A stretch of DNA of 64,000 nucleotides from Paracoccus maritimus (GTDB lineage: Bacteria; Pseudomonadota; Alphaproteobacteria; Rhodobacterales; Rhodobacteraceae). The position numbers and the translations under genes are program-made. The notes beneath the pieces were generated by a model that ran no database searches, was not told the DNA's origin, and saw nothing but the letters and a program-made list of their open reading frames with translations. Each line of letters starts with the position of its first letter. Position 1 is the first letter of the stretch. The stretch is taken from assembly GCF_025195095.1 (NCBI RefSeq), contig NZ_JANAVZ010000005.1, positions 1 through 64,000 on the forward strand, read 5' to 3'. Shown here one piece after another: positions 13,061-49,056 of the stretch.

Positions 13061-15868
13061 ATGCCCCATCTTGATCTATCGCGCCGAGAGTTTCTGGCAG
13101 CCGCCGCCGCACTCGGAGTTGCCGCGGCGGTAAGGCCACTAGGGCAGGCCCGAGCCGCGATGATGAATACGGCCGTTGGTCAGGACCATGGTTGGTTCGC
13201 GGGTGGAAAGTTGCGTTACCGCCGGGACGGTATGGCGAAGGTAACTGGTAGCAAGGTGTTTTCTATCGACGTACGGGCGCGCGATATCGAAGGCTGGCCT
13301 GATCGGCAATCACACGCGCTGACCATTCACGTCCCGCACACGAATCGCATCTATAAAGGACTGGACCTGTCTCTGCTGCGGCCCGATCTTGAGCCGGACG
13401 TTCTGATCGACGCTGAACGGCTTCAGCAGGACGGGGTCGCGATGCCGCAATCCGATTTCTACGGCGACTTCTTCCTTGCCCCCGGTGCCGTCCCGCCAAT
13501 GCTGGGCCAGCCCGTCGCGATTGGCATCTGGCACGATTACGAACGCTTCCGGGCTGCCCGCAAGAAGCTGCAATTCGTCGACAGCATTTTCCTCTGGGGC
13601 GAGGTGGCCGACTCAACCGCGCGCGCCCCATATGGCGCAGCTCGCTATGTCCGGATTGGCGGCGACGACCCGCGCGGCGCTGATCGCTTTTCGCCGATGA
13701 AGGATCTCGTCGTCTGGCCGCAGACCGACGACAGAGGCGTGCATTGGCCCGGCCCCGACGACGCGGCCTTTGGCGATGCGATGCGCCACTCCGCAGATCT
13801 GCGCGCGAAGATGGAAGATCCGCCGGAAGGCTGGCGGGTCTTTGCCCGCAACTATCACAGCCAGTCAGTCGACCCCGCCGCGATGGAGGTGGAAAACGGC
13901 CTCGGGTGGTATCAGCCCGAACAGGGCCGGCTGAACGTCGTCGGCGCGACGCAATCGCCCTATACTGTAGCGCATCACATCTTAGACATGATGTCGGCCA
14001 GCCGGATGACGTTGAGCAAGCTTGATTTCGTCACAGGCTACACTGTTGGCTATGGCCAGAAGGAACATCAGTCATTCCCATACTATGTCGCAATTGCGGC
14101 GCTTTATGCGGAAGGGCGGCCCGTGCGGTTGGCGCTGGACCGCTGGAAACATTTCCAGTTCGCGCTGAAGCGGCACCCGTTTGACATAAGGACCGCTATT
14201 GCAGTCGATGCGGAAGGGCGGTTCCAGATCATGACCTGCGACATGACCGGCGACGGCGGCGGGGTGAAGAATTTCAGCCCCTCAGTGGGCACGGTTGCCG
14301 TGACGGCGGCTCAGTCGATCTATTACATGCCAAGCAGCGATCTTTCCGTGCAGATGCTTCCCTCGGTCAACGTCACCGCGGGGTCGATGCGTGGCTATGG
14401 CACTCTGCAATCCATGGCCACGACTGAGATGCTGGTCGATGAAATCGCGTCGGAAATGCAGATCGACGCCATCGAACTGCGACTTCGCAACGTCATCCGT
14501 TCCGGCATGAAGAACACCCAGGGGGCGGTACCTTCGGGCCACTTGAGGGCGGCCGAGATTCTGGAACTTGCGGCCGGGGACCCGATGTGGACCGGCCGAC
14601 ACGAACGCAAGGCCTCGTTCGAGGCCGAAAATCCCGGCATGGTCCACGGCACCGGTTTCGCCGCCGTGCAGAAGGATTTCGGCACGGGCGCCGAAGCCGC
14701 CGTCGTGCAGCTTGAGGTAACGCGCGAAGGTCGGCTGAAGATGCGCCATGTCGCGTCCGAGATTGGCTGCGGCTCGACCACCTCGCAATTGCTGGTGGTG
14801 CAGTCACATCTGGGCAGGCCCGCCGACGAGGTGGAATTCTCGGTCCAGGACTGGCCGCAGATGCCTCTGCACACCGAGGACGAGCCCTATACGACCTCGC
14901 AAGAGGACGAGGACCGGTTGGCGCAGGATCCGCGTTGGGTGCCGCGCTTCACCTCGCCGCGCTCGGCGTCGAACTCGGCCTATTACTTCACACATGCCTC
15001 GCGGCAGGCCGCGCAGCTTCTGCTGCGGTTGACGCTGTGGCCGGCGGCGCGGTCGATCTGGTCGGGCGGCGAATCGGGCGGCCAGATGTTGCCGGAACCC
15101 GTCGAATTCGAGGATCTGGAATGGCGCGACGGCATGCTGACCGCGCGTTCGATGCAGCCCTTGTCGCTGGAACGCCTGGCCGCCCACGCCCATGCGCGCG
15201 GAATGATCACCGGCGTCTGCGTGCATACCTTCAACCGATGGGCTTGGGCAGAGGCTGATTTCGAGATCGGGGGCGACCGGTTCAGGGCCGCCATCGATGC
15301 GCTGTCGGTCAAGTGGGGCGAGGCGGCCGACGACGTGACAAAGGCCCGAATGACCGATGGGGGCTATGCGTTCCAGCCACGCGTGCAGGTTCATTACCCG
15401 CCGGTCCAGCGCAACAATGCCGGCACGGTCTACTACGCCCCCTGCGCGACCGTGATCGAACTGGCGGTCGAGACCGGGTCGGGCAAGGTCCATGTGCTGT
15501 CGCACAAGACATGGCTGGAATGCGGCACCCAGATCGTTCCCGAATTGGTGTCTGGCCAGTTGCAGGGCGGGGTCGCCATGGGTATCGGCCACGCGCTTTA
15601 CGAGGATCTGCCGCTTGGCCCCGAGGGACCGGGCAACGGCACATGGAACTTCAGCCGTTATCACCTGCCGCGTGCCGCCGAGGTGGCGGTATGGTCCCAG
15701 ACCGGCCATGTGCTGCCACCACTGAACGACGCGGACCCGCCCAAGGGCATGGCCGAGGTGGTCATGATCCCCGTCGCCGGCGCATGCGCCAACGCCATCG
15801 CGCACGCCACCGGCCATCGCTTCCGCGAATTCCCGATCAGCGCGACCCGTATTCAGGAGGTGCTGTGA
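13061..15868 (+). CDS. Molybdopterin-dependent aldehyde-type oxidoreductase, large subunit (Tat-exported)
   Basis: A 935-residue protein of the xanthine oxidase/isoquinoline 1-oxidoreductase beta family. A Tat signal is visible at residues 7-12 (SRREFL) followed by an alanine-rich hydrophobic stretch and ARA. So the enzyme should act in the periplasm. The single-chain molybdenum-cofactor domains follow: GKVTG-type start (here AKVTGSKVFSIDVR), AGSMRGYGTLQ in the cofactor region, and the C-terminal LVSGQLQGGVAMGIGHALYE. The next two genes encode a 2Fe-2S subunit and a triheme cytochrome c, the arrangement of membrane-associated aldehyde dehydrogenases that feed electrons to the respiratory chain. 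Substrate not determinable; aldehyde or N-heterocycle are the usual options. Confidence 0.88.
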   Translation: MPHLDLSRREFLAAAAALGVAAAVRPLGQARAAMMNTAVGQDHGWFAGGKLRYRRDGMAKVTGSKVFSIDVRARDIEGWPDRQSHALTIHVPHTNRIYKGLDLSLLRPDLEPDVLIDAERLQQDGVAMPQSDFYGDFFLAPGAVPPMLGQPVAIGIWHDYERFRAARKKLQFVDSIFLWGEVADSTARAPYGAARYVRIGGDDPRGADRFSPMKDLVVWPQTDDRGVHWPGPDDAAFGDAMRHSADLRAKMEDPPEGWRVFARNYHSQSVDPAAMEVENGLGWYQPEQGRLNVVGATQSPYTVAHHILDMMSASRMTLSKLDFVTGYTVGYGQKEHQSFPYYVAIAALYAEGRPVRLALDRWKHFQFALKRHPFDIRTAIAVDAEGRFQIMTCDMTGDGGGVKNFSPSVGTVAVTAAQSIYYMPSSDLSVQMLPSVNVTAGSMRGYGTLQSMATTEMLVDEIASEMQIDAIELRLRNVIRSGMKNTQGAVPSGHLRAAEILELAAGDPMWTGRHERKASFEAENPGMVHGTGFAAVQKDFGTGAEAAVVQLEVTREGRLKMRHVASEIGCGSTTSQLLVVQSHLGRPADEVEFSVQDWPQMPLHTEDEPYTTSQEDEDRLAQDPRWVPRFTSPRSASNSAYYFTHASRQAAQLLLRLTLWPAARSIWSGGESGGQMLPEPVEFEDLEWRDGMLTARSMQPLSLERLAAHAHARGMITGVCVHTFNRWAWAEADFEIGGDRFRAAIDALSVKWGEAADDVTKARMTDGGYAFQPRVQVHYPPVQRNNAGTVYYAPCATVIELAVETGSGKVHVLSHKTWLECGTQIVPELVSGQLQGGVAMGIGHALYEDLPLGPEGPGNGTWNFSRYHLPRAAEVAVWSQTGHVLPPLNDADPPKGMAEVVMIPVAGACANAIAHATGHRFREFPISATRIQEVL

Positions 15869-16434
15869 TGGTCGGCCGGATCAATTTTACTGCTTCCATC
15901 AACGGCCAGCAGGTCGGGCCGCTGGATCTGCCCGAAGACCTGATGATGGTCGAACTTTTGCAGGAATACCTGAATCTGACCGGCACAAGGCTGTCCTGCG
16001 GTCAAGGCGTCTGTAGTGCCTGCGCCATTATCGTGGACGATCCCGATGGCGGCAGTCGGACCGTACCGGCCTGTATCACCGGTGTCGCCTGGCTGAACGG
16101 AAAGACCGTCCGCACGATCGAAGGGATCGCAGGGCGCGACGATCAGGGCAATCCTGTGCTCTCGCCCGTCCAGCAGGCGTTTTTGGAACATTTTTCATTC
16201 CAGTGCAGCTATTGCACGCCGGGCTTCGTGAACGCTGCGACCGTGTTGGTCGAGCGATTGGAGCGCGCGCCGATCCCGGTTGAGGATGTCGAGGACGCCA
16301 TCCTGAAGGCGCTGGACCCGCATATCTGCCGCTGCACCGGCTATGTCCGCTATTACCAAGCGGTGCGTGACGTGATCCTGAGCACCCCTGGCCTAACCAT
16401 CGGCACGGTCGCGGCGGCGGAGCGCCCGGCATGA
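15868..16434 (+). CDS. 2Fe-2S subunit of molybdenum oxidoreductase
   Basis: 188 residues. An N-terminal plant-ferredoxin-type cluster site is seen as CGQGVCSAC (cysteines 44, 49, 52), followed by the alpha-helical second-cluster domain with CSYCTPGF and CRCTGY. This is the small-subunit layout of the xanthine oxidase family. It passes electrons from molybdopterin to the cytochrome. ATG 15868 overlaps the upstream stop and follows CAGGAGG. It has no signal peptide, so export would rely on co-transport with the Tat-dependent large subunit (known for this family). Confidence 0.93.
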   Translation: MVGRINFTASINGQQVGPLDLPEDLMMVELLQEYLNLTGTRLSCGQGVCSACAIIVDDPDGGSRTVPACITGVAWLNGKTVRTIEGIAGRDDQGNPVLSPVQQAFLEHFSFQCSYCTPGFVNAATVLVERLERAPIPVEDVEDAILKALDPHICRCTGYVRYYQAVRDVILSTPGLTIGTVAAAERPA

Positions 16435-17705
16435 TCCGGCTGCTGAGGATACTGGGGCTGCTGGTGCTGATCGCCGTCGTCGCCGTGGGCGTGCTGTTCT
16501 GGATCGGCCGTGACCGTGGTGCCACCCCGCCGGCAAGTGTGGATCTGGCCAATCTCGGCGCCGACCAGCGTCAGCAGATGCTGGAGCGGGGTAGGTGGGT
16601 GGCCCGCGCCGCCGATTGTGCGGCCTGTCACACCGATCCGGATGGCGGCTCGGATCTGGCCGGCGGACTGCCGATGGTAACGCCGATGGGCACGCTTTAC
16701 GGCACCAATATCACGCCCTCGACCGAACATGGTATCGGCGACTACAGCGCCGACGACCTTTACCGGGCGGTCGCGCAAGGCGTCGCGCCGAACGGGCGCA
16801 ACCTGTATCCGGCGATGCCCTATCCCAGCTATCACCGGATCACCCGCGCGGATTCCGACGCGCTGTGGCTCTGGCTGATGCAGCAACGTCCGGTGGACAA
16901 GCCGAACCGCCCTGACGATCTGATGTTTCCGTTCAACATCCGGCCCGGCATCGCGGTCTGGAACGCGCTGTTCCGCCCCGAGGCCGAACCGTTCGATCCA
17001 CAGGGCCTTGAAAATCCGCAGGGCGAATATCTCGTCGATGTATTGGGCCATTGCGGCGAATGCCACACGCCCCGCAATGTGGCTTATGCGCTGACCGACG
17101 ATCATCTTGCCGGTGAGGTCATCGAGGGCGCCTATGCCCCCGATCTGCGCCCCGACGCGCTAGCGCGGCGCGGCTGGTCCGGAGAAGATCTGGTTGCATT
17201 CCTGCATCGCGGGTTGTCCCCTCAGGGTGTCATGACGTTTCGCATGTTCCCGGTCCTGTCGCATTCGACCAGTCACCTGTCCGAGGATGACCTGTCCGCG
17301 ATCGCCGACTACCTTGCCGACGGCACGCAACTGCCCGGCCCGCAACAGCGGCCGCCGGGTGGAGCGACTGCGGTGGACGGGCATACGCTGTATCTGGGGT
17401 TGTGCGCCGGTTGTCACGGCGACAATGGTCAGGGCCAGCCGCATTCGTCAGTGCCGCTGGATACCAATACCACCGCGATGTATCGCGACCCGCTGAACCT
17501 GATCCGCATCATCGCCGAGGGCATTCCCGAACGCGATCTCGCACAGGGAGAGCGTATGCAGGCGATGCCCGCTTTCGGCGGAATGCTGTCCGATCAGCAG
17601 ATGGCTGAATTGGTCAATTATCTACGCGAAAGGTGGGGCGGGAGGCCCGGCGACGTGACCACCGGCGCCGTCACCTCGGTGCTTGAAGGTAATGAGAGCC
17701 ACTAG
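16431..17705 (+). CDS. Triheme c-type cytochrome, electron acceptor subunit
   Basis: 424 residues with an N-terminal hydrophobic signal/anchor (LRILGLLVLIAVVAVGVLF). Three heme sites are present: CAACH at residue 63, CGECH at 208 and CAGCH at 325. This is the alcohol/aldehyde dehydrogenase cytochrome subunit layout, as in gluconate and aldehyde dehydrogenases of acetic acid bacteria. It would take electrons from the 2Fe-2S subunit to ubiquinone or a terminal oxidase in the periplasmic membrane face. It overlaps the 2Fe-2S gene by four bases. Confidence 0.92.
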   Translation: MIRLLRILGLLVLIAVVAVGVLFWIGRDRGATPPASVDLANLGADQRQQMLERGRWVARAADCAACHTDPDGGSDLAGGLPMVTPMGTLYGTNITPSTEHGIGDYSADDLYRAVAQGVAPNGRNLYPAMPYPSYHRITRADSDALWLWLMQQRPVDKPNRPDDLMFPFNIRPGIAVWNALFRPEAEPFDPQGLENPQGEYLVDVLGHCGECHTPRNVAYALTDDHLAGEVIEGAYAPDLRPDALARRGWSGEDLVAFLHRGLSPQGVMTFRMFPVLSHSTSHLSEDDLSAIADYLADGTQLPGPQQRPPGGATAVDGHTLYLGLCAGCHGDNGQGQPHSSVPLDTNTTAMYRDPLNLIRIIAEGIPERDLAQGERMQAMPAFGGMLSDQQMAELVNYLRERWGGRPGDVTTGAVTSVLEGNESH

Positions 17706-17762
17706 GCGTTTGATCCCACGGTTTGATGGTGCGATCCTTTCGAAGGAATGGATGGATGCCCC

Positions 17763-17840
17763 GTGGGACAAGTCCGTCACGGCAACGCCACGACCATGTA
17801 CGCTCTCAGAGCAGCAATACAGCGGTCGCAGGGTATTACG
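17763..17840 (+). pseudogene. IS481-like transposase, N-terminal scrap
   Basis: GTG 17763 opens VGQVRHGNATTMYALRAAIQRS, the start of a common IS481-type transposase, then similarity stops. The downstream 17840-17932 reads FYSNGRHHSRAFPLFLDYLR in another frame, which vaguely resembles the end of a LysR protein; I give that little weight. Confidence 0.5.
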
Positions 17841-18197
17841 CATTCTATTCCAACGGTCGCCATCACTCTCGCGCCTTTCCCCTGTTTCTTGACTATCTGC
17901 GGCAGGAAGGAAGACGTTTTGCGGGAGAGTAGTTCAGAATGCGTTTCCCGTAATGCGTCGCTCAGCCCTGCCGATGTCACTGCCCAATTTGAACGGGCTG
18001 TTTGACGAGATTCACACTGCGCTTGGCAAGCATGATGCGCGTCCTCGGGATCAGGTTAGAAGACGCGCTCGCGATGGTGGAGGCGGTGGAGATCTGAGAA
18101 GAAGGGGCCAGCGGCTCGCTGCCGGCTCATGCCAGTCATTCGATCCTGACCTTGCGAATGATCGAAGTTAGCCCTTCTGGAAATTCATCCCCTACCA

Positions 18198-18400
18198 TCA
18201 CTTTCCAGCCGATCCGTTGGCGGCCGGAATGCGGATGCGCTTTGGGTTGTAAAAACATCTCTGCGTGGCCGACCACGCCCGTCCGGCTTCCTGACGCGTC
18301 CGGTACGTGCGGCGCCTGATTCTCTAGCGTTCGAGCAGGTTGAAGAAGCTGTGGGCGTGGGCAATGTCGCCGCACAACTGGTGAGCTTCAACAAGCGCTA
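18198..18400 (-). pseudogene. IS3-family transposase remnant
   Basis: The minus strand reads GDIAHAHSFFNLLER, a stop, RIRRRTYRTRQEA and FYNPKR in shifting frames. That is the C-terminal catalytic region of an IS3-family OrfB (normally SFFNLLKRERIRRRTYRTREEA). It ends a few bases before the stop codon of the methyltransferase gene, marking the downstream border of the glycosyltransferase/catalase operon. Confidence 0.65.
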
Positions 18401-18403
18401 TCT

Positions 18404-18991
18404 TCACCCCCCCGCCGGACATGTGCGGCATTCGAAGATCGCCGCGATCCAGGACGCGTCTCGATCCTTGTAGATGGCGTGCCGGGGGTGCGCCTCGGCG
18501 AGGCCGTGCAGCAGGCGATCCTGTACGTCAAGCGCACTCAGGGTGGTTTCGGTCGGGCCGGTATAGCCGGCGACGAGACAGCAACCGCCTGCGGCCAGAG
18601 ATTTCGCAACCAGGGTCACGGTCCTGTCGAGTTCCGCGGGACCGAGGTAATACAGAACCTCGGAAAGAACGATCAGGTCCCATCGCCCCGCGGGCCATTC
18701 TGCGGGTATCGTTGCGACCTCGAAGCGGGCATTTGGGATCCCGCGCGCCCGTGCCCGTGCTACCGCCGTCTGCGCGAAATCGAGGGCAAGCAAGCTGTCG
18801 CAGCGTTGGGCGATCTCCGCGCTCATCACGCCGATGGAGCATCCGATCTCTAGCCCGCGTGGGTATCTGCATCTTGGCAGCAGTGCGAGGCAACGGCGAT
18901 ACTTCTCGGCCTCATAGGCACTGGTCTCGTAGTTCCAAGGATCGGGCTCGGCCTTGTAGAGCGCATCGAAGGATGTTGCATCCCGGGTCAT
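18404..18991 (-). CDS. NodS-like SAM-dependent methyltransferase
   Basis: 195 residues. SAM-binding motif I is LEIGCSIGVMSAEIA (about residues 46-60), with LLALDFAQTAV and LIVLSEVLYYLGP as later motifs. NodS relatives N-methylate chitooligosaccharide precursors; in this operon the target is more likely a product of the neighbouring PIG-L deacetylase and glycosyltransferases (inference). It is the last of eight minus-strand genes and overlaps the PIG-L gene by four bases. Confidence 0.82.
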   Translation of the reverse strand: MTRDATSFDALYKAEPDPWNYETSAYEAEKYRRCLALLPRCRYPRGLEIGCSIGVMSAEIAQRCDSLLALDFAQTAVARARARGIPNARFEVATIPAEWPAGRWDLIVLSEVLYYLGPAELDRTVTLVAKSLAAGGCCLVAGYTGPTETTLSALDVQDRLLHGLAEAHPRHAIYKDRDASWIAAIFECRTCPAGG

Positions 18992-19713
18992 GACGGAATG
19001 AAGATCTCGTCGCTGACGATGAAATGGCGTGCCAGGGCCTGTGGCATTCTAAAACCATCCGGGTCGTCGCGGATCAGGTCGGTCATCTGCGATGCATGGG
19101 CGAAGACTGCACGGGACTTGGTCCCGCGATGCTCCTGGCTGCGGAACCGTCGCGCCCCCTGCCATCCGCACCCAGCCACGGGACGCTGGACACGTCCCCA
19201 GACCGGGCAGGCGAACATTCGAACGCCGCAGTGACGATGCGTCAGCCACTGCGCCAGACGCCAGACACGTTGGTGATCGGGGTGCGGGTCGCCGTTCCAG
19301 GTGGTCCAGATCGCCGTGACGTCGGCAAACACCGGCGCCAGGGCCGTCTCGACTTCCGCGAAGCACGCTTGGTTATCCGGCGCGGCCATGTCCGGGTAGC
19401 CAAGCCAGTGGACCACGCCGCTCCCCTCCGTGAGGATCTTTACTGCCAGCCCCACCTCGCGGCGTCGGAGCGCCCGAAGACGGTCGGGAGGATGGCTTTT
19501 GGAGTTGGGATGCGACCGCGCGCCATCCGTCACGACCGCGACATGGATCCGGCGGCCGGTTGCGGAAGCGGCCGCGATCGCCCCGCCCATCGCGAGGCTT
19601 TCGTCGTCCGGATGGGGGGCAAGCACCAGCACGTCGCCCGATCCCGCAAGTTCGGAAATGCCGACGGCCGGCGCATCGCGAGTCTGACCTACGAGAGATG
19701 TGAAAACGATCAT
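18988..19713 (-). CDS. PIG-L/LmbE-family deacetylase
   Basis: 241 residues. The zinc motif HPDDE is at residues 34-38, and a later HPDH supplies the other ligand, so the metal site looks complete. The family removes N-acetyl groups from GlcNAc-containing glycans and glycolipids. I choose ATG 19713, which overlaps the preceding stop (ATGA), over an upstream in-frame ATG at 19755 inside that gene. In the operon it may free an amine that the downstream NodS-like enzyme methylates. Confidence 0.88.
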   Translation of the reverse strand: MIVFTSLVGQTRDAPAVGISELAGSGDVLVLAPHPDDESLAMGGAIAAASATGRRIHVAVVTDGARSHPNSKSHPPDRLRALRRREVGLAVKILTEGSGVVHWLGYPDMAAPDNQACFAEVETALAPVFADVTAIWTTWNGDPHPDHQRVWRLAQWLTHRHCGVRMFACPVWGRVQRPVAGCGWQGARRFRSQEHRGTKSRAVFAHASQMTDLIRDDPDGFRMPQALARHFIVSDEIFIPS

Positions 19714-20795
19714 CAGTCGCTCCAGATTGCGCCGATCGGTTTCCGGGATTCGCAAAGGGTCCGGCCGACCCGCCGAAGCTTGCCGTCAAGGTCAGCCTGC
19801 CTCAGGAAGAACCCGAGATCCCGGCGCAGGAGATCGACCGGATGCCCGGTCACGAACGACCGGGTGCCAAGCGCGCGATCGGCCAACGCCATCGCTTCGA
19901 GGCACGCGGTCTCTACCGTCTCGCGCGCCGCAAGGGACAGGGCGACATCTTCCTCGCCGGCGCTGGGTGCCTCGACCCTGCACGCGGCATCTGTGACGAA
20001 CAGGCGCGCCCCGTGCGCGAGGCCCGCCACACGCGCGACACGGTGCAGCTGCGCCTCGTTGGCAGCGTCGCCGAAGCCGCGCACCGCCCTGCGCACCGCC
20101 TCGGCGAGCGCTTCCAGGCCGCCCACATGCACCGCGGCATAGCGCCAGACCCCGCCCTGGAAATAAGGCTCACGCAGGTAGTCGCCAGCCCCACCCAGCG
20201 GCTCTGCCTCGAGGCCGTCGAAGTCGTAGCGGCCCGAGACGGTCGCCCGCATCCCCGAGGTCTGCCAGACGCTCTGGTCCGCGCGGCGGGCGTCGGCGAC
20301 ATTGGTGATGACCAGACGCGGACCTTCGGGCGTTCCGACAGGAAGGATGGCGCGGCTGACGATCTTCAAGCCCGAGGCGAATCGTTTGCTGCCTGCCAGG
20401 ATCAGTCGCCCATCGTGATGCACCCGCAATTCGACCGGCGGGTCATCATCGGCCCCCCACACGCCGTACACCCTGCCGTTCAGGGCTTCCGCGGCATGGG
20501 CACACCGCTGCGCGGGCGTTCCGTAGATCGCGATGAGACGCATCGCGTTCATGTGGCCTTCGGCCAGACGACCGACCGGCAGACTGGCCGCACCGATGCG
20601 GCGCAGAAGATCCACATGGTCCGCGGGATCGGCCACCGCGCACAATCGTCGCAGGATGCCCGAGGTTGCCAGCAAGGCCATGTCCGCCGACAGGTCGCGA
20701 TGGCCGGCATCGGCCTCTGCCGCGCCGGCGGCGATGGTGGCGAACACGGCCTGTTCGTCATCTTGGATGCGCCGGGGCGCGGCGGTCCCCCTCAT
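19713..20795 (-). CDS. Acyl-CoA dehydrogenase-like protein
   Basis: 360 residues with the middle and C-terminal pattern of acyl-CoA dehydrogenases: GVWGADDDPP in place of the FAD-loop, LAGSKRFASGL, TSGMRATVSGRYDF, and a helical C-terminal domain. The canonical catalytic glutamate region is not obvious, so dehydrogenase activity is uncertain. It lies between a GT2 gene and the PIG-L gene, overlapping both by four bases. Its conserved-looking partnership with PIG-L, NodS and a GT2 suggests a shared small-molecule or glycoconjugate pathway. Confidence 0.78.
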   Translation of the reverse strand: MRGTAAPRRIQDDEQAVFATIAAGAAEADAGHRDLSADMALLATSGILRRLCAVADPADHVDLLRRIGAASLPVGRLAEGHMNAMRLIAIYGTPAQRCAHAAEALNGRVYGVWGADDDPPVELRVHHDGRLILAGSKRFASGLKIVSRAILPVGTPEGPRLVITNVADARRADQSVWQTSGMRATVSGRYDFDGLEAEPLGGAGDYLREPYFQGGVWRYAAVHVGGLEALAEAVRRAVRGFGDAANEAQLHRVARVAGLAHGARLFVTDAACRVEAPSAGEEDVALSLAARETVETACLEAMALADRALGTRSFVTGHPVDLLRRDLGFFLRQADLDGKLRRVGRTLCESRKPIGAIWSD

Positions 20796-21811
20796 GCCGA
20801 CGCCCTTTCCCGCCTGGCCCGTTCGCTTGCCAGCGCCGCAGCGAGGCGCGGCAGTTCCCGCGGGATGTCGGAAAGGCGCATGCGCATGCGCGGCATCCCG
20901 GCAAGGTGCAGGCGCGCCGCGGACAAGGCCTCAGGGGGGATGTCGGGCCGGGCGGAGAGTTCGCGCAGCTCAGACCGCAGCCGGGCCCGGGCCACTGTCG
21001 CCTCGGCAGGTTCCAGCAGCCAATCGAGAACCGGGTCGGGGGCGTGGATCCGGGATCGCAGCGCTTCGGCCATGCCCCCGGGCGCGCGCCCATCGAGCCG
21101 GCACGACGTTTGCACGCGCGGTCGCGCGGAATGGCGGACACGCCAGCCCCGCAGGTCCGCGCAACCTGCAAAGGCGCGATCCTCGCCGGATGGCAGGGCA
21201 GGGAAGCCACCAACGTCGTTGTAGAGCGGCATGCGGAAGGCGAGGCTCGCGCCGGGCTCGGACAGGTGGGGCGGGTCCGGATCGTGCGGAACCGGATCGA
21301 TGGCGCTTTTCAGGGCAATTGTCAGCGCCATGTATTCCCCCTCCAGCGCCCCGCGTCGCGCGATGACAGGCGGCAGGCGCACGAATTCGGCCGGATCGGG
21401 AAGGACGGTGCCGCAGATCAGGTCGGCCCGGTTCAATTCATCCAGGTTTGCCTCGACCCAGTCGGGAAAGATCCGGCTGTCGGCATCCGTCGTCATGACC
21501 ACGCCGCGCGGCGCTAGATACGGCGCACAGGCGGCGACAAGGTCCCGCCGCACGGCGCCGACTCCACCCCCTGCTGCGTCAGGACAGTGGAGGACGAGGC
21601 CGCTTGCCCCGCGCGCTGCGAACCAGGCAAGCGTGCGTTCAAGCGTCCGGTCCGAGCAGCCGTTGACCCCGACCACGATGCCGCCGCGGCGCCGCAAGCT
21701 TTCCGCAGCGGCGTCCAGGCAGTCCGCGATGCGGTCTGCCTCATTACGCGCCGGGATCGTGATCGCCACCGGCCAGGGATCGCCCGCACCGAAGCGGCGC
21801 GACCCTTTCAT
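20792..21811 (-). CDS. Family 2 glycosyltransferase
   Basis: 339 residues. The GT-A start [21 protein letters not shown] and GVNGCSDRT are seen, then [12 protein letters not shown] with the metal-binding DxD. The C-terminal part is arginine-rich with no clear membrane span, so it is probably cytosolic. It overlaps katE upstream and the acyl-CoA dehydrogenase-like gene downstream by four bases each. Donor and acceptor sugars are unknown. Confidence 0.85.
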
Positions 21812-23868
21812 GCCCCACGGTCCCAGAACCGCATCCTGGCGCAGGCGGTCAGGAAGTCCTCGGCTCCGTCATCCGCCGAAAGGACGAAGACGCCTGCGTC
21901 GGGGTCATCGGGGACTGCCTTCGGCCAGAATTCAGCCTGTGCCGCCTCTGACAGCGCGATGAATTTGAGATGCGCATGGGCGTCGGCAAGCCAGCCGCGG
22001 GCCGCATGAACCCGTCCCAGCCTGGTGGCACCCTCGTCGGAGGCGATCACCGCCACGGCGTCATAGAGAACCGACGGCGCCCCATCAAGCTTCTGGTCCG
22101 CTTCAATCCGCTGCCCCCGGTTGGACGTGATGCCGCCAACCTTCTCGGCCACGATCTCTACCGTTGCGCCGGCGTCCTCGGCCGCCAGCTTTAATGCCTC
22201 GAGGACCTTTGCGTCGATGCCGTCGGTCACCAGCACGCCCAGCTTGCGCCCTGAGAAGGTATCCGGCGCGTTTGCGAGGATGCTGAGCGCTGGCGACAGG
22301 TCGGTGTCGATCACCGGCCGCGCCGGTTCCGCCGCCACTGGCACCTCGTTCAGACCGAGCCCGTCCGCGACGATCTCGGCAAGGCCGATGTCGATGTTGA
22401 CGAGATGCGACACCATCCGTTCGCGGATCGAGACCGCCTCGACCTTGGAAAGCTCGAAGATCAGCGCATCGGCGATGTGATCCTTCTCGGTGTCGGTCTG
22501 GCTGAGATAGAACATCCGCGCCTGGCTGTAGTGATCGGCGAACGTCTCCGAGCGCACGCGCAGCTTTTCCCCCTGTTCCTCGGCCGGGTAGGACCGGAAG
22601 CCGCGTTCGGGATTCTCGCGCGGACCCTCGCCGTGGCTGTTCGGCTCGTAATTCGCGCGGCCCTGCGGTTTGTGCATCGCCATGTGACCGTCCTGCTGGA
22701 GATGCGCGAAGGGACAGCGTGGTGCGTTGATCGGGATGTGGTTGAAGTTGGGGCTGCCAAGGCGCTTCAGCTGGGTGTCGAGGTAGCTGAAGTTCCGCCC
22801 CTGCAGCAGTGGATCGTTGGAATGTTCGATGCCCGGCACGATATTGCCGGTCTGGAAGGCGACCTGCTCGGTCTCGGCGAAGAAGTTGTCCACCATCCGG
22901 TCAAGCGTCAGCGTGCCCACCATGCGCACTGGAACCTGTTCCTCGGGGACAAGCTTGGTCGCGTCCAGCACGTCGAAGTCGAAGCTGTCGGCGAAATCTT
23001 CGTCGAAGATCTGCACGCCGAGATCCCATTTCGGATAATCGCCCTTCTGGATCGCATCCCAGAGATCGCGCCGGTGAAAGTCGGGATCGGCGCCGTTGAT
23101 CTTGACGGCCTCGTCCCACAGCACGGACTGCATCCCCTGCTGCGGCTTCCAGTGAAACTTAACGAAGCTGGACTTGCCTGCGTCGTTGACAAGGCGGAAC
23201 GTGTGGACCCCGAAACCTTCCATGAACCGGAAGCTGCGCGGGATGGTGCGGTCCGACATGATCCACATCACCATGTGCATCGCCTCGGGCATCAACGAAA
23301 TGAAATCCCAGAAGTTGTCGTGAGCGGTCTGGGCCTGGGGGAATGCCCGGTCGGGTTCCTGCTTGGCGGCGTGGATCAGGTCGGGGAACTTGATCGCGTC
23401 CTGGATGAAAAACACGGGAATATTGTTGCCGACAAGGTCCCAGTTGCCTTCCTTGGTGTAGAATTTCACGGCGAAGCCGCGCACGTCCCGGGCAAGGTCG
23501 GCCGAGCCCTTGTTGCCCGCAACGGTCGAGAAGCGGACGAACACCTCGGTCTTCTCGCCAACCTCGGTCAGCACTTTGGCGCGGGTGACGTCGTCCAGAG
23601 ACTGCGTCAGTTCGAACGTGCCATGGGCCCCATAGCCGCGGGCGTGCACGACGCGCTCGGGGATGCGCTCGTGATCGAAGTGGAACAGCTTCTCGCGGAA
23701 GATCTGGTCCTCGATCAAGTGCGGGCCGCGACGGCCCACCTTAAGGCTGTTCTGGCCATCCGCAATCGGCATCCCGACCTGGGTGGTCATGGTCTCGTGG
23801 CCGTCCTGGGCGGTCTGGTGGGTCTCGCCACCGTCGGTTGGCTGGGTCTTGGAGGTCTTACGAGTCAT
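21808..23868 (-). CDS. katE: Large-subunit monofunctional catalase (HPII type)
   Basis: 686 residues, the length of large clade 2 catalases. The catalytic histidine is at residue 75 in [12 protein letters not shown], the substrate-channel QDAIKFPD follows, and the heme-ligand tyrosine is in [14 protein letters not shown] (about residue 361). The last about 150 residues form the DJ-1/PfpI-like flavodoxin domain typical of HPII ([11 protein letters not shown]). It dismutates H2O2. Unusually it sits inside a glycosyltransferase operon: 18 bp after a GT4 gene and overlapping a GT2 gene. A stress-type promoter ahead of the operon would explain this. Confidence 0.96.
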
Positions 23869-23886
23869 CTCAGAGCCTTTCCTTGG

Positions 23887-24930
23887 TCAGAGGGATTGGG
23901 TTTCGAGCATCCGCTCGTCTTCCTTCGCCGCCGCGCGCGCCAGCTTTGCGCGCCAACGCGCAACGACCCGCGACAGGCGGAAATCGGGCTGCGCGGCCGC
24001 GAGGGGTGCTCCGGGGGGTGAAGCGCGCCACTGTCGGACGCGCAGTGCGATGGCGTCGGAATCGGTGGTGTCGATGCACTGCGATGGGTCCGAGGCGACC
24101 TCGTCATTCGCGCCCAGTCCCCGTTGCAGAAGGGCCGGGCAACCCAGCGCGTTGGCCTCGGCGATGACAAGACCAAATGTCTCGGCGAACTGGTCCTGCG
24201 GATAGAACAGGCAAAGCGCATGTCGCATCTGGAGGTGAAGGTCGGCTTGGGACAACCTTCCGTAGGACAGGACACCATCCGGTATCCGGCCGGTCGGCCA
24301 TGCCAGATATCCGGGATCGGCGACGGCCAGTCGCACGGTCGGAATTCGTGACCGAAGCACCTCGAACCGTTGAAAGACCTGGGCCAGCCCCTTGTGAGGC
24401 GAGCTTGCGTAGAGAAGCAGATCCGGGTCGCGCGCGGTACCGTCGGGTGCCATGTCATCGGCAATCGGGTTGGGTATGTGCGAGATGCTGGCCAGGTCCC
24501 GCCCCGCGAAACCGCGCAGCCAGCGGGCATGCGCCGCAGAGACACAGATCACCTCGATACCAGCGGCGCGCAGGCCGGCTGCATACACGCGGTTGTGGCG
24601 TCCCGGAAACACATGCTGCCAGACGATGACCCGGGCGCCGGGATGCTGTCGGGCGAGCTTCGCGGCGATCTTCCAGGAGTTGACGACCACGATCACGTCA
24701 GGCCGCGCTTCCAGCGGGCAGCTGACATCCCATCCGGAATAGCACACGCCCTTCACCTGGACCGGGCCAGTCGCCCGGGCGGCCTGGTGGACGGTTACCG
24801 GCCGATCCACCGCGAGACCCTCGCAGATGCGCACAAGCGTCGCCTCGGTCCCGCCGAGACCGGCAAGATCGCCCGGCGCTCCGCTGTAGGCGCGCGGGGC
24901 CATGGCATCAAGGAAGGCGACGCCGGCCAT
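23887..24930 (-). CDS. Family 4-like glycosyltransferase
   Basis: 347 residues with a GT-B layout. The N-terminal half has GGTEATLVRICEGL, the C-terminal donor site has LLYASSPHKGLAQV and the E-x7-E-type signature in AETFGLVIAEANALGCP. ATG 24930 is chosen because it overlaps the upstream stop (ATGA). It probably adds a sugar from a nucleotide donor to the product of the two upstream GT2 enzymes. No membrane span is visible. Confidence 0.86.
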   Translation of the reverse strand: MAGVAFLDAMAPRAYSGAPGDLAGLGGTEATLVRICEGLAVDRPVTVHQAARATGPVQVKGVCYSGWDVSCPLEARPDVIVVVNSWKIAAKLARQHPGARVIVWQHVFPGRHNRVYAAGLRAAGIEVICVSAAHARWLRGFAGRDLASISHIPNPIADDMAPDGTARDPDLLLYASSPHKGLAQVFQRFEVLRSRIPTVRLAVADPGYLAWPTGRIPDGVLSYGRLSQADLHLQMRHALCLFYPQDQFAETFGLVIAEANALGCPALLQRGLGANDEVASDPSQCIDTTDSDAIALRVRQWRASPPGAPLAAAQPDFRLSRVVARWRAKLARAAAKEDERMLETQSL

Positions 24931-25844
24931 CACGCGAACTTCTCGGTCATGCGCCCGCACAGCCGACCTGTCGCCGCGGGGTCGCAGAGGCCGGGATTGC
25001 TGCATGCGGCGACGCGGACCCCCGTAAGATCGATCGGGATCGGCGTCACCTCACGGGTGCGGAACCAGTGGCCCACCGCATCCCAGACTCGCTGCCGATC
25101 CGCCTGACGCCGCGCGCTGTCGTAATCGGTCGCCGATTGCTGGGTCAGCCCGTCCGGGGATTCGATCTTGGTGAGCAGGATTTCCGGAATGACCCAAAGC
25201 ACCTCGCCGGCCATGATCAACCGGTTGCGGAACTCCCTGTCCTCCTCGATGCAATCCGAGAACCCGCCGAGACGCTGGAAGACCGAGTGATGGAACAAAC
25301 CGGAATTGATATGTGTCCAGTCGCCGGGAACGCCCGCCGCCATCTGCAGGTTCGGGAAGAAGTCGTCGACAAGGCTGAGCGTGCGACGGATCTCGGCGCG
25401 TTCGCCGTTCGGCAGGATCAGCTCGTGGTGGGTCAGGACCGCACCGATCTGTATCGTCGTGTTGGGCTCGCGGCCCGCAAGGCGCCAGTTGAGGCAAGGA
25501 TGAGCGCCGATGGCCTCATTGCCCATCACCCGCGCCTGCCGCATGACCTTGTCGCGATGCGGAATATCGTCAGAATCGTGGAAGGTTACGGCGTCAGATG
25601 CCGATAACGCGATGCCCAGGTTCTTTGCCCGCGCGGTGCCGACGTTTTCCGCCAGGGTGATGCCGACGAGTCGCTGGTTGCCCGCATACCTTTTCAGGAT
25701 TTCGCCGGTCTTGTCGGTCGATCCGTCGTCGATGACCATCACCGTGATCCCTGGATGGGATTGCCCAAGCGCGGCGTCGATCGCCTGAGCCAGGACACTG
25801 GCCCGGTTGTACGTGGGGATGACGATGGTGACGCTAGGGATCAT
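24930..25844 (-). CDS. Family 2 glycosyltransferase
   Basis: 304 residues. Classic GT-A start VTIVIPTYNRASVLAQAID, VIDDGSTDKTGEIL, and the DSDD metal-binding site in TFHDSDDIPHRDK. An acceptor-domain EEDREFRNRL follows. It overlaps the genes on both sides by four bases or fewer. It is probably cytosolic. The product is unknown. Confidence 0.9.
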   Translation of the reverse strand: MIPSVTIVIPTYNRASVLAQAIDAALGQSHPGITVMVIDDGSTDKTGEILKRYAGNQRLVGITLAENVGTARAKNLGIALSASDAVTFHDSDDIPHRDKVMRQARVMGNEAIGAHPCLNWRLAGREPNTTIQIGAVLTHHELILPNGERAEIRRTLSLVDDFFPNLQMAAGVPGDWTHINSGLFHHSVFQRLGGFSDCIEEDREFRNRLIMAGEVLWVIPEILLTKIESPDGLTQQSATDYDSARRQADRQRVWDAVGHWFRTREVTPIPIDLTGVRVAACSNPGLCDPAATGRLCGRMTEKFA

Positions 25845-27304
25845 GTCCGGACGTCCTTTTCCGAGCTAAGGGAACCGCGGTATGCGGCGAGGCTGGTGCA
25901 GGTGCGACGAGCGAATGGATGCGGCAGCATCAGGACAACCGCACCTGCCAAACCCAACCAAGGCAGGAAGGACCAGCTCCAGAGAATCGCGAGACCTGCA
26001 GCGGTAAGAGCAGGAAACAGCCAACCGATGCGTTCGGAAGCCTCACCGGCGTCCTTTGCAGTGCGCCTGAAGGTTCCCGAGCGACCCAAGATGGCGTCGA
26101 TGCTTGCCATTGCCGAGGGTACGATCATCGCGATCCGCACGGCGAGCGCGGCGAGGATCACCGGCAGCGCGGGCCTGCCGCGGACAATCGTACTGATCAC
26201 CATCGGCAGGCAGACCGAAAGCACCACCAGCAGCAATCCGAAGCCCGAGAGCGCGCACAGCCGTGCAGCTTGACCGCTGTCGTCACCCAACAGCAGGGCG
26301 CAGGTGCCCCCGGTAAGTCCCGCCGTGAGCGGCAGCGCCATGTTGGCCCAGGCCGTCAGCTGAGCGAAAACCTGGATCGCGGTGCGCGCAGACATCCCCT
26401 TGAACCCCTGCCGGAGCATGTCCGCGTTCCCCGCGGTCCAGCGATAACGCTGAAGCGCGAGTCCGGTGAAATCGATCGGCAGGATACCCCTGCCGACGAT
26501 GCGGTCGACGAACCGGCCCTGAAACCCCTGCTGCAGCAGTCGCAGCGCCAGTTCTGCATCCTCGGTGATCGTGCGCGCGCTCCATCCGCCGGCCGCTTCC
26601 AGCGCGGAGCGCCGGATCACGCTCAATGTTCCCGTCAGCAGCATGGCCTTCGCGCTGTCCGCCTGGCGCGCATGACGCAGAAAGTAGTCCGCCAGTTCCA
26701 ACGAGAGTCCGGCCGCTGCACCCGAGACGTTGCGGTAAGCCTGCGGGAACTGGATGAAGTCGTCGTCTCGGCACGCCAGTTCGGCGGCCGCGGTTGCCAG
26801 GAACGCCGGTGCCACGCAATAGTCGGCATCAACGACGACCACATGAGTTGCCGCCCTGTCCGTGTGGCGCAGCGCAATATTCAGCGCGCCCGCCTTGGCA
26901 CCCGTCACGCCCTCCACGTGAAAGAAACGGAATCTGGGGCCAAGATCGCGGCAGGTCCGCTGCACGGGCAGCCAGAGCGAAAGATCTTTGGTGTTGTTGT
27001 CCAGCAGGATGACCTCGTAGTCCGGCGCACCGACCTGTCGAGCCAAGGCCCGCAAGGTGGCGATGACCATCTGCGGCGGCTCCTCGTGCGTGGCGACGTG
27101 CACCGAGAACATCGGCGGCTGATCCGAGGCCCTGCGGTCGGCCGTATGCAGACGCGGCCGCGCGATCCCGGCGAGCAGGTTCAGCATCCCCAGCATGGCC
27201 TGCACGGCAGTCGCCAGGGCCACGACTCCCAGCGCCGCGCGGGGTGCCAGGCAGGCAAGCGCCGTCAAGCCGAGGAACACGCCTCGGCCGTCTACCCTGA
27301 CCAT
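25841..27304 (-). CDS. Membrane-bound processive-type family 2 glycosyltransferase
   Basis: 487 residues with N-terminal membrane spans, a cytosolic GT-A domain (VVVVDADYC with the DxD, ITEDAELALRLL) and the QxxRW motif LQRYRWTAG, followed by about four C-terminal spans. This is the cellulose-synthase/hyaluronan-synthase-like architecture that makes and extrudes beta-linked polymers or glycolipids. It is the first gene of the eight-gene operon, with AGGAG a few bases before its ATG. A polysaccharide or glycolipid product made under stress is a reasonable inference. Confidence 0.88.
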   Translation of the reverse strand: MVRVDGRGVFLGLTALACLAPRAALGVVALATAVQAMLGMLNLLAGIARPRLHTADRRASDQPPMFSVHVATHEEPPQMVIATLRALARQVGAPDYEVILLDNNTKDLSLWLPVQRTCRDLGPRFRFFHVEGVTGAKAGALNIALRHTDRAATHVVVVDADYCVAPAFLATAAAELACRDDDFIQFPQAYRNVSGAAAGLSLELADYFLRHARQADSAKAMLLTGTLSVIRRSALEAAGGWSARTITEDAELALRLLQQGFQGRFVDRIVGRGILPIDFTGLALQRYRWTAGNADMLRQGFKGMSARTAIQVFAQLTAWANMALPLTAGLTGGTCALLLGDDSGQAARLCALSGFGLLLVVLSVCLPMVISTIVRGRPALPVILAALAVRIAMIVPSAMASIDAILGRSGTFRRTAKDAGEASERIGWLFPALTAAGLAILWSWSFLPWLGLAGAVVLMLPHPFARRTCTSLAAYRGSLSSEKDVRT

Positions 27305-27357
27305 TGCAGAATTCTCCTGAGTGCATCGGCACGGGACATCGTGCGATCCGACAATTC

Positions 27358-27382
27358 AACACCGCAGGCAGAGCCGTGTTCC
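27358..27382 (-). promoter_or_regulatory. Putative EcfG (general stress sigma factor) promoter of the katE/glycosyltransferase operon
   Basis: On the minus strand GGAAC (27382-27378) is followed after 16 bases by TGTT (27361-27358). The alphaproteobacterial EcfG consensus is GGAAC-N16/17-CGTT, so only the first base of the -10 differs. The site lies about 54 bp before the ATG of the first gene, leaving a leader of suitable length with AGGAG. Catalase genes are common EcfG targets. Not experimentally supported here. Confidence 0.55.
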
Positions 27383-27454
27383 AACAACATTTGTTAGGGT
27401 GTGTCTGCGGCGTGGTGCGGGTGGGCATCCGGCGCGCACCGGGACGCGGATCTT

Positions 27455-27652
27455 ACTGGGCGCGCGGAAGCGCGACTGCGCATACTGCGACATGCGGAGG
27501 AGATCGGTCACGTCGCGAGGACTTGCCGCTATTTCGGGATAGGTCGGTCCAGCTTCTGCCGTTGGCGTAAAGCCTATGCGGAGCATGGCAAAGCTGGCCT
27601 GGTTGCGCGAAAGCAGATCCAGCATTCCAATGCCCGATCGTCTTCGCGCTAA
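27455..27652 (+). pseudogene. IS481-type transposase, N-terminal remnant
   Basis: The frame reads ARLRILRHAEEIGHVARTCRYFGIGRSSFCRWRKAY in segments, i.e. the helix-turn-helix start of a transposase of the IS481 type, up to a stop at 27650. The catalytic domain is missing. It separates the glycosyltransferase operon from the sulfonate island. Confidence 0.65.
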
Positions 27653-27688
27653 AGGCTAAGGAGATGAGCTAAACGCTCTCCATAAGGC

Positions 27689-28735
27689 TTATCCACTGGA
27701 AGGAGGCGCAAGCGAATCGCGAAAGACGAATTCGGCTGAGTAGGACAGGGATTGTGGCTGATGCCCACTGTCTATCCACTCCAACAACCGTTCGCCGGCG
27801 GACGCGCCCATGCGCTTGTGCGGAACCCGGACGGTGGTCAATGCAGGAGATACAGCCGTGGCGAGGTCGATATCGTCGAAACCTGTCACCGACAGATCGG
27901 CCGGAATGTTGAGGCCCAGGTGTCGCGCGCCGCGCATAGCCCCGGCCGCCAAGACGTCATTGCCGCATATCAACGCGGTCGGACGGTCCGCGCCAGACAA
28001 TAGCCGCCTTGCGGCGGCTTCGCCATCTTCCAGCGTATAGTGGCATCGAATGACGTCTTCTGGTCCAAGCACCACCCCCGCCGCTTCAAGCGTTGAGGTG
28101 ATCCCGCGAAGTCGCGCAGTTGCGCGGTCGTTCCCATCGGTCATGCCGGAAATCACTCCGATGCGTCTGTGTCCGAACTCCAGGACGCGTCGGGCGACCT
28201 CGGCGGCCGCACGCGTGTTGTCGAAACCGATTGTCAGGTAGGGAAGTTCGTCCGGGATCGACCAAAGAAGTGCAAAAGGTACCTGACGCGCAGTCAGAAT
28301 GTCATAGGCTTCCGCAGAGCGCTCGGTCCCGATCAGGGCGATGCCGTCAACGCCACGCGCGAGCATCGTCCGCAGTTGAACCTGTTCCTGCTCGGGGGCG
28401 TATTGCGAGGTTGCAACGAGCAGTGTCACCTTGCGTAAGGCAAGCGTTTCCTGCAGGGCCTGCAAAGCCGTCGCGAATATGGCGTTTCCCATGGTGGGAA
28501 TGATCGCCCCGATGGTATTCGTCCGTCGAGACGCCAGCACTTGGCCGCCGAAATTTGGTGTATATCCCAAGGCCTTGACCGCGACCTCGACCGCATTGCG
28601 TGTTTCTTCGCGAACCCGGTCGGGTGTGTTGAGACTGCGCGAAACGGTCGCCGTCGATACGCCGGCCAGCCGAGCGACATCCTCGATTGTAGGGAGCCGG
28701 TAGGGGCGGTTCTTCGCCTCGGTATCAGATTTCAT
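27689..28735 (-). CDS. LacI-family transcriptional regulator of the DHPS genes
   Basis: 348 residues. The N-terminal headpiece is typical: PTIEDVARLAGVSTATVSRSLN (about residues 15-36) with the hinge VLASRRTNTIGAIIPT. The ligand-binding domain follows (IGFDNTRAA, ALICGNDVLAAGAMR, GFDDIDLA). It is transcribed away from the small membrane protein/TRAP/hps genes, and two LacI-type palindromes lie between. It most likely represses the plus-strand operon until DHPS or a derivative is present; this is inference from position. Confidence 0.9.
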   Translation of the reverse strand: MKSDTEAKNRPYRLPTIEDVARLAGVSTATVSRSLNTPDRVREETRNAVEVAVKALGYTPNFGGQVLASRRTNTIGAIIPTMGNAIFATALQALQETLALRKVTLLVATSQYAPEQEQVQLRTMLARGVDGIALIGTERSAEAYDILTARQVPFALLWSIPDELPYLTIGFDNTRAAAEVARRVLEFGHRRIGVISGMTDGNDRATARLRGITSTLEAAGVVLGPEDVIRCHYTLEDGEAAARRLLSGADRPTALICGNDVLAAGAMRGARHLGLNIPADLSVTGFDDIDLATAVSPALTTVRVPHKRMGASAGERLLEWIDSGHQPQSLSYSAEFVFRDSLAPPSSG

Positions 28736-28767
28736 GTGCCAGGTTCCTTCATCCTGACAATATCGAA

Positions 28768-28803
28768 AGTAAGCGCTTGCATTGCAACATGTAAGCGCTT
28801 ACA
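28768..28803. promoter_or_regulatory. Pair of LacI-family operators
   Basis: A perfect 14-bp palindrome TGTAAGCGCTTACA lies at 28790-28803. A near copy GTAAGCGCTTGC, one mismatch in symmetry, lies at 28769-28780. Their centres are 22 bp apart, about two helical turns, so dimers would bind the same face. The central CG flanked by AAG/CTT is the typical LacI/PurR half-site pattern. The pair is between the divergent regulator (start 28735) and the first plus-strand gene (28846). Confidence 0.8.
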
Positions 28804-48943: not shown

Positions 48944-49056
48944 AGTTCTTACTTCACTTCACTGGGTGACGATGGAGACCAAGCTGTGTTCCAATTTCCC
49001 ATTTTCTTGTCGTCCGTCAATGTGGAAAGATTTTCCCGAATGGCCTGAGGTCATGG

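What the first reader, a model, noticed from the sequence alone, without database searches (positions are those of the whole stretch)
18404..27304. Catalase HPII embedded in an eight-gene glycosyltransferase/PIG-L/NodS operon
All eight minus-strand genes overlap or are within 18 bp. They combine four glycosyltransferases (one processive membrane type), a deacetylase, a methyltransferase, an acyl-CoA-dehydrogenase-like protein and katE. The enzymes could make a deacetylated, N-methylated glycan or glycolipid under oxidative or desiccation stress. I know no characterised product for this set.
Basis: partly seen in the sequence, partly recalled or inferred. Interest (0 to 1): 0.6.

Follow-up and report, generated by a model that had tools for sequence, protein, structure and literature searches.

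The report
Stress operon: catalase plus sugar-modifying enzymes
A bacterium carries its only catalase of the common haem type inside a tightly packed operon of sugar-building and sugar-modifying enzymes; the same enzyme set recurs in many bacteria, often behind what looks like a general-stress promoter, so it probably makes an unknown amino-sugar product that helps cells survive stress.

Summary
Eight minus-strand genes (18404-27304) overlap or lie within 18 bp. The unit is conserved: the same eight-gene order occurs in 8 loci including this one, and the core GT2/ACAD-like/PIG-L/methyltransferase is complete in 54 of 61 non-redundant Rhodobacterales loci; it also occurs in other Proteobacteria and, in part, in Deinococcus and Nostoc. 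A haem or manganese catalase match lies in the fetched stretch in 28 of 61 loci, in several layouts. A general-stress (EcfG) promoter motif lies upstream of the first gene here and in 40 of 60 loci (background 1.3-1.7%), but in 0 of 16 other alphaproteobacterial loci. The genome has an EcfG-type sigma factor, NepR and PhyR. The ACAD-like protein lacks the canonical catalytic Glu (Ala in 15 of 15) and is nearest by sequence to flavin monooxygenases. Best reading: a general-stress operon that makes an unknown deacetylated, probably methylated amino-sugar glycoconjugate, with katE as co-regulated partner. Expression and product are not shown; ten open-access literature searches found no description of the set.

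The parts
27358..27382 (-). EcfG-type general-stress promoter motif GGAAC-N17-GTT, 78 bp upstream of the first start codon
   Evidence: at 76-83 bp in 7 of the 8 eight-gene loci, five without and two with one mismatch; none found in L197
25841..27304 (-). membrane GT2 glycosyltransferase, cellulose-synthase-like, with DAD/TED/QRYRW motifs ('GT2c')
24930..25844 (-). GT2 glycosyltransferase ('GT2b')
23887..25005 (-). GT4-type glycosyltransferase with E-x7-E; likely true start ATG at 24930
21808..23868 (-). large-subunit haem catalase (KatE type), the only PF00199 match of the genome
20792..21811 (-). divergent GT2 glycosyltransferase of the conserved core ('GT2a')
19713..20795 (-). acyl-CoA-dehydrogenase-fold protein without the canonical catalytic Glu, monooxygenase-like by sequence
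18988..19755 (-). PIG-L deacetylase with HPDDE and HPDH motifs; likely true start ATG at 19713
18404..18991 (-). SAM methyltransferase of the NodS Pfam family

Best explanation
This is one operon of the alphaproteobacterial general stress response. Stress frees the sigma factor EcfG from NepR through PhyR, and EcfG transcribes all eight genes from the site at 27382. KatE removes hydrogen peroxide. The other seven proteins build and modify an amino-sugar glycoconjugate: the glycosyltransferases assemble it (the membrane GT2 probably extends or exports a chain), PIG-L removes N-acetyl from a GlcNAc-type residue, the flavoprotein oxidises the product as a monooxygenase, and the NodS-family enzyme methylates it, probably on the freed amine. 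KatE is there for shared regulation and is not a biosynthetic step. Shown: gene order, families, conservation of the unit, motif enrichment, presence of the regulators, loss of the canonical catalytic Glu. Inferred: EcfG binding, every reaction, the product and its protective role.
For: Conserved eight-gene unit with one KatE clade and an ACAD-like grouping that matches it but for one core-only locus, L200. Four-gene core complete in 54 of 61 Rhodobacterales loci. EcfG motif within 200 bp upstream of the estimated first gene in 16 of 23 and 22 of 38 loci, background 1.3% and 1.7%, binomial p 2e-25 and 2e-29 although loci are related; five altered motifs 0 of 23; 40 of 60 combined. EcfG-type sigma, NepR, PhyR and an HWE/HisKA_2 kinase adjacent on contig C11. 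Recurrent stress neighbours: KatE, Mn-catalase, Ku/LigD, DUF892. PIG-L profile: the best named PDB matches are diacetylchitobiose deacetylases; the methyltransferase matches NodS 3ofj.
Against: The window's site ends in TGTT where the canonical -10 is CGTT; only 6 of 23 and 6 of 38 loci have CGTT. Genome-wide the CGTT motif is not enriched (66 sites against 80 for the reversed control). In 16 non-Rhodobacterales alphaproteobacterial loci the motif was found in 0, though the operon start is uncertain there. 20 of 60 Rhodobacterales loci lack it by script. [quoted passage not shown] No expression data or product. In the near relative L019 the glycan genes look decayed while katE is intact. 33 of 61 core loci have no catalase match in the fetched stretch.
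Confidence: 0.6

Rival explanations
1. The unit is only a regulatory neighbourhood: katE and an unrelated saccharide pathway were gathered by repeated recombination because both use the general stress sigma factor, and they have no joint biochemistry.
For: Catalase sits in different places relative to the core (inside, directly downstream, about 9 kb upstream, or as Mn-catalase), and the KatE proteins of the internal and the downstream layout form separate clades. No catalase match in the fetched stretch of 33 of 61 loci. Ku/LigD and DUF892 join in the same way.
Against: In the eight-gene layout katE is 18 bp from GT4 and overlaps GT2a by 4 bp in the window, and the order has persisted in several genera.
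Confidence: 0.45
2. KatE has a local job: the ACAD-fold flavoprotein is an oxygen-using enzyme that leaks hydrogen peroxide, and the embedded catalase protects the pathway.
For: The protein lacks the canonical dehydrogenase Glu and is nearest by sequence to DszC/TdsC/MsuC-type flavin monooxygenases. Catalases recur beside the module in Alpha- and Betaproteobacteria.
Against: 49 of 61 loci have no KatE in the operon run. Fold comparison does not separate monooxygenases from dehydrogenases.
Confidence: 0.15
3. The operon makes a Nod-factor-like methylated chito-oligosaccharide: membrane GT2 as chain synthase, PIG-L in the role of NodB, and the NodS-family enzyme as in Nod factors.
For: NodS Pfam hit of 50.8 bits; PIG-L profile's best named PDB matches are chitobiose deacetylases; membrane GT2 with QxxRW.
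Against: For GT2c the NodC model gives 28 bits against a cut-off of 550, and the NodS model 65 against 300; no NodA-type acyltransferase among the eight Pfam results. The core persists without the membrane GT2, which is in the run in 21 of the 62 loci listed.
Confidence: 0.12

Closest known systems
Alphaproteobacterial general stress response regulon (PhyR-NepR-EcfG)
   Same: GGAAC-N-GTT promoter motif and EcfG-type sigma/NepR/PhyR in the genome. In Sphingomonas melonis Fr1 two catalases and a run of glycosyltransferase genes (#3506-#3509) are EcfG-dependent (PMC6599016, passages)
   Different: The authors treat the neighbouring #3505 as an indirect target; a term search of that main text gave 0 for 'acyl-coa' and 'deacetylase'. 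Regulation here is predicted, not measured
Nod factor synthesis (NodC-NodB-NodS; recalled)
   Same: Chain-forming GT2, N-deacetylation and amine methylation would be the same kinds of step
   Different: PIG-L instead of NodB, no NodA seen, equivalog cut-offs missed, catalase and flavoprotein present
Mycothiol and bacillithiol synthesis (GT4 then PIG-L; recalled)
   Same: GT4 and PIG-L in one unit; stress association
   Different: MshB, Mca and BshB equivalog cut-offs missed; no cysteine ligase among the eight Pfam results
Flavin monooxygenases of the acyl-CoA dehydrogenase superfamily (DszC, TdsC, MsuC; amino-sugar nitrososynthases KijD3, DnmZ, 3mxl)
   Same: Best sequence matches are DszC/TdsC; nitrososynthase-type entries stand at Foldseek ranks 33, 37 and 39
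   Different: 14-21% identity in the Foldseek rows shown, substrate unknown; classic dehydrogenases fit the model as well or slightly better in VIA-align

Membership tests
EcfG general stress regulon | GGAAC-N16/17-NGTT site upstream of the first gene | tested here: met
   27382 minus strand, 78 bp upstream; -10 is TGTT, not the canonical CGTT
EcfG general stress regulon | EcfG-type sigma, NepR and PhyR encoded in the genome | tested here: met
   contig C11; the sigma factor is called EcfG by its place beside NepR and PhyR
EcfG general stress regulon | EcfG-dependent expression | not testable with these tools
   needs RNA-seq
Catalase HPII (NCBIfam equivalog) | score above curated cut-off 1102 | tested here: not met
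   905 bits
Large-subunit haem catalase | Catalase, Catalase-rel and Catalase_C domains | tested here: met
   604, 75 and 41 bits
NodS nodulation methyltransferase | NCBIfam NodS cut-off 300 | tested here: not met
   65 bits
Nod factor cluster | NodA acyltransferase in the unit | tested here: not met
   no such Pfam family among the eight proteins; one of them has no Pfam match at all, and the rest of the genome was not searched
PIG-L deacetylase | PF02585 above cut-off with HPDDE and HPDH motifs | tested here: met
   80.1 bits against 28.2; motifs
Acyl-CoA dehydrogenase (dehydrogenating) | catalytic Glu in the YEGT loop | tested here: not met
   Ala in 15 of 15 rows; only two canonical paralogues anchored the column. 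The alternative Glu position of isovaleryl-CoA-type enzymes (recalled) was not examined
ACAD-superfamily flavin monooxygenase | closest sequence and fold relatives are monooxygenases | tested here: inconclusive
   sequence and Foldseek favour them; VIA-align ties them with dehydrogenases
Processive membrane GT2 | DxD, TED, QxxRW and membrane segments | tested here: met
   (hydropathy count, not a trained predictor)
Mycothiol/bacillithiol deacetylase | MshB, Mca or BshB cut-off | tested here: not met
   19-30 bits against 182-277

The most novel reading that the evidence does not exclude
GT2a, the flavoprotein, PIG-L and the NodS-family enzyme form an undescribed, widely shared pathway for an oxidised, methylated amino-sugar metabolite used as a general-stress protectant across Alpha-, Beta- and other Proteobacteria, with related gene sets in Deinococcus and Nostoc. 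The flavoprotein oxidises the amine freed by PIG-L, as nitrososynthases do, and the recurring catalases deal with the peroxide it leaks.
Probability: 0.15. Interest if true: 0.8.

Novelty: new variant of a known kind. Interest (0 to 1): 0.52.

Why it matters
General stress regulons are full of genes of unknown function. Here a four-enzyme core is found across several phyla and on plasmids, keeps company with catalases and Ku/LigD, and in the Rhodobacterales carries the general-stress promoter motif again and again. That makes a specific untested claim: stressed cells make a modified amino sugar that, as far as my searches show, nobody has named. It can be tested by one deletion and metabolite profiling.

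Tried and rejected
Literal HPII and NodS labels: equivalog cut-offs missed. Mycothiol/bacillithiol and Nod-factor membership: rejected on cut-offs. Ordinary beta-oxidation dehydrogenase: rejected on the missing Glu. Structure comparison to decide between monooxygenase and dehydrogenase: undecided, all 50 rows shown lie at Z 30.7-32.8 with both kinds among them and dehydrogenases on top. Genome-wide count of the CGTT motif: no enrichment, 66 against 80 in the control. EcfG motif outside Rhodobacterales: 0 of 16; at the annotated first genes of five non-Rhodobacterales plasmid loci (L213, L131, L128, L129, L214) a relaxed look gave one weak variant, in L214. Literature: ten searches gave no description of the set; three papers were seen in passages only (PMC6599016, PMC8103513, PMC5830050), the other papers only in search listings.

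Partial or missing cores: Deinococcus sp. D7000 and Methylobacterium sp. FF17 plasmid pB have the ACAD-like gene without adjacent PIG-L or methyltransferase; Deinococcus proteolyticus has ACAD-like and PIG-L only; in D. radiodurans a helicase gene separates PIG-L from the methyltransferase and no GT2a match was seen. In one search PIG-L is in the run in 59, methyltransferase in 56 and GT2a in 55 of 61; several incomplete loci lie near contig ends.

In one search the script mis-anchored L025 and L027 and missed L019, whose first gene has an internal deletion; one search corrected L025 and L027, and one search shows the L019 motif, which would make 41 of 60. One search stopped with an error at L197, for which one search found no site. 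'First gene' is estimated from tblastn starts. One search was a first version of the motif test that broke the chain at katE; its numbers (14 of 39) are superseded.
Full report
The window. The window is the first 64 kb of contig C40 of a 3.93-Mb, 44-contig genome. Its nearest relative in the searches is Paracoccus sp. R12_2 (KatE 94% identical, L019). That the host is a Paracoccus is my inference.

The genes. The eight ORFs and their order were confirmed, as were their families. In transcription order: membrane GT2 (GT2c), GT2b, GT4, KatE, GT2a, ACAD-like, PIG-L, methyltransferase. Junctions are -4 bp overlaps except KatE (18 bp after GT4) and two longer overlaps that shrink if GT4 and PIG-L use the ATGs at 24930 and 19713. 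Catalytic motifs are present in the glycosyltransferases and PIG-L. KatE has the three domains of large-subunit catalases and is the only PF00199 match in this draft genome; other catalase families were not searched there.

The unit is conserved. An ACAD-like profile was searched in whole genomes; only five candidates per genome were scored in most genomes, so counts are lower bounds. In the class sample six of 387 genomes have a best match over 190 bits, and the next best is 52 bits. Matches at E 1e-20 or better: 39 of 390 genomes of the order and 34 of 397 of the phylum, the own genome included. In plasmids, 56 of 72,556 records match at E 1e-5, weak ones included. The four-gene core GT2a, ACAD-like, PIG-L, methyltransferase is complete within one run in 54 of 61 non-redundant Rhodobacterales loci. 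ACAD-like, PIG-L and methyltransferase with a glycosyltransferase next to them were also seen in Bradyrhizobium, Methylobacterium, Sphingomonas, Novosphingobium, Komagataeibacter and Nostoc, sometimes with the glycosyltransferase on the other strand. In Cupriavidus the PIG-L gene lies beyond the catalase on the other strand. Deinococcus sets are partial.

Layouts. Eight-gene with internal katE: window, L018, L019, L190, L194-L197. Seven-gene with GT2a last: 13 loci, of which 11 have a DUF892 match and 6 a katE about 9 kb upstream. ACAD-PIG-L-MT-GT2a-katE: four Sulfitobacter or Sulfitobacter-like loci (L125, L185, L186, L193). The rest: core alone, or with Ku/LigD or catalases nearby. KatE of the eight-gene layout is one clade (100/99) and KatE of the Sulfitobacter layout another (100/100). 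ACAD-like proteins of seven eight-gene loci (L019 left out) group together except that one core-only locus, L200, falls inside. So the eight-gene operon is largely inherited as a unit, and catalases joined the core in more than one arrangement.

Catalase linkage beyond chance. A KatE match lies in the fetched stretch (up to about 10 kb each side) in 21 of 61 loci and a Mn-catalase match (E 1e-5, not checked one by one) in a further 7; KatE is within the operon run in 12 of 61. In 101 genomes of the order 33 have a PF00199 match, with 33 listed matches above 360 bits, so about 0.3 per genome. By my arithmetic a random 20-kb stretch would hold one in roughly 0.2% of cases. Loci are related, so this is not an independent count.

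Regulation. The EcfG motif of Sphingomonas melonis is GGAAC-N17-20-GTT (PMC6599016, passages), and the canonical -10 is CGTT (review PMC8103513, passages). A site GGAAC-N17-GTT lies at 27382-27358 on the minus strand, 78 bp before the first ATG; its last four letters are TGTT. In two sets of Rhodobacterales loci such a site is within 200 bp upstream of the estimated first gene in 16 of 23 and 22 of 38, against 1.3% and 1.7% of background 230-bp windows; the strict CGTT form in 6 of 23 and 6 of 38. Two scrambled -35 versions, the reversed motif and two wrong spacings gave 0 of 23. The two sets share one identical pair (L126, L187). Combined after removing it: 40 of 60 by script. Among the eight-gene loci the motif is exact in five (window, L018, L019, L194, L196) and has one mismatch in two (L190, L195), always 76-83 bp upstream; none was found in L197. 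The genome encodes an EcfG-type sigma factor, NepR, PhyR and an HWE/HisKA_2 kinase side by side. A like site (ending GGTT) lies at the start of the nepR reading frame; it is upstream of nepR only if that gene starts later than the longest ORF. Against: no genome-wide enrichment of the CGTT form, 0 of 16 in other alphaproteobacterial loci, and in Rhodobacter sphaeroides PhyR matters for membrane stress and has no major role in oxidative stress (PMC5830050, passages). A consensus scan of 17700-28800 found two sigma-70-like sites, both on the plus strand, no more than shuffles give.

Chemistry. Among solved structures the PIG-L profile matches best an unnamed protein (3wl4) and then diacetylchitobiose deacetylases, so an N-acetylglucosaminide is the likeliest substrate. 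The methyltransferase matches NodS (3ofj, 52 bits) and, better, an unnamed methyltransferase 4isc (85 bits). The ACAD-like protein of the window has no Pfam match. Its family profile matches DszC and TdsC best. The model (mean pLDDT 79, five-sequence alignment) has the acyl-CoA dehydrogenase fold; a putative monooxygenase, TdsC, DszC and MsuC lead in Foldseek and nitrososynthase-type entries stand at ranks 33, 37 and 39, but VIA-align ties dehydrogenases and monooxygenases. The catalytic Glu of the YEGT loop is Ala in 15 of 15 family rows (two canonical paralogues anchored that column). I therefore think it is a flavin oxygenase or oxidase acting on the sugar or amine; this is inference, and flavin binding was not tested. 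GT2c matches cellulose synthases; GT4 matches no solved chain at E 0.01.

Mechanism offered. Stress releases EcfG, the operon is transcribed from one promoter, KatE clears peroxide, and the other seven enzymes make a modified amino-sugar glycoconjugate. The regulatory half I hold at about 0.8, the product half at about 0.5, and the statement in the loose form given at about 0.6. KatE as a co-regulated neighbour is part of that reading; the main rival is its stronger form, with no joint biochemistry at all, so the two confidences overlap.

Novelty. The parts are known families and the regulon is known. The combination, its breadth and its promoter were not found in ten searches of open-access full text (listed in Tried and rejected). 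I file it as a new variant of a known kind: an uncharacterised saccharide pathway in the general stress regulon.

Noticed in passing
G000:C9:19100-19543 (L017, L023:9028-9538): A second, short fragment in the same genome, about 91% identical to the last part of the ACAD-like gene and followed by a bit of PIG-L; looks like a remnant copy.
   Followed up: partly
L019:3665-11350: In Paracoccus sp. R12_2 the same operon looks decayed: large internal deletions in GT2c and the ACAD-like gene and frame changes in GT2a, while katE matches over its whole length. Assembly error not excluded.
   Followed up: partly
window 27450-27630, + strand: A short stretch reads by eye like the helix-turn-helix part of an insertion-sequence transposase, just upstream of the operon's promoter motif; the family is recalled, not searched.
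   Followed up: no
window 18404-27304: The operon has 66% G+C against 61-62% in the flanks and the window as a whole, and within the genus only this genome and R12_2 showed the eight-gene layout among the loci examined; it may have been acquired.
   Followed up: partly
L127:10546-12885, L217:10639-12882: In Deinococcus the ACAD-like protein is about 400 residues longer at its N-terminus; in D. radiodurans that part has no Pfam match at E 0.001 and by eye resembles a glycoside hydrolase.
   Followed up: partly
L131, L143, L154, L157, L173, L178, L209, L213: Ku and/or LigD genes lie within about 10 kb of the four-gene core in several groups of Proteobacteria.
   Followed up: partly
window 45875-49575: A fragment matching the C-terminal part of a Mutator-family transposase (49057-49575), beside a 1022-residue Hint-domain protein (45875-48943).
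   Followed up: no
window 12983-17705, + strand: A molybdopterin-cofactor-binding protein, a frame that by eye holds an iron-sulphur subunit, and a cytochrome c lie convergent to the operon.
   Followed up: no
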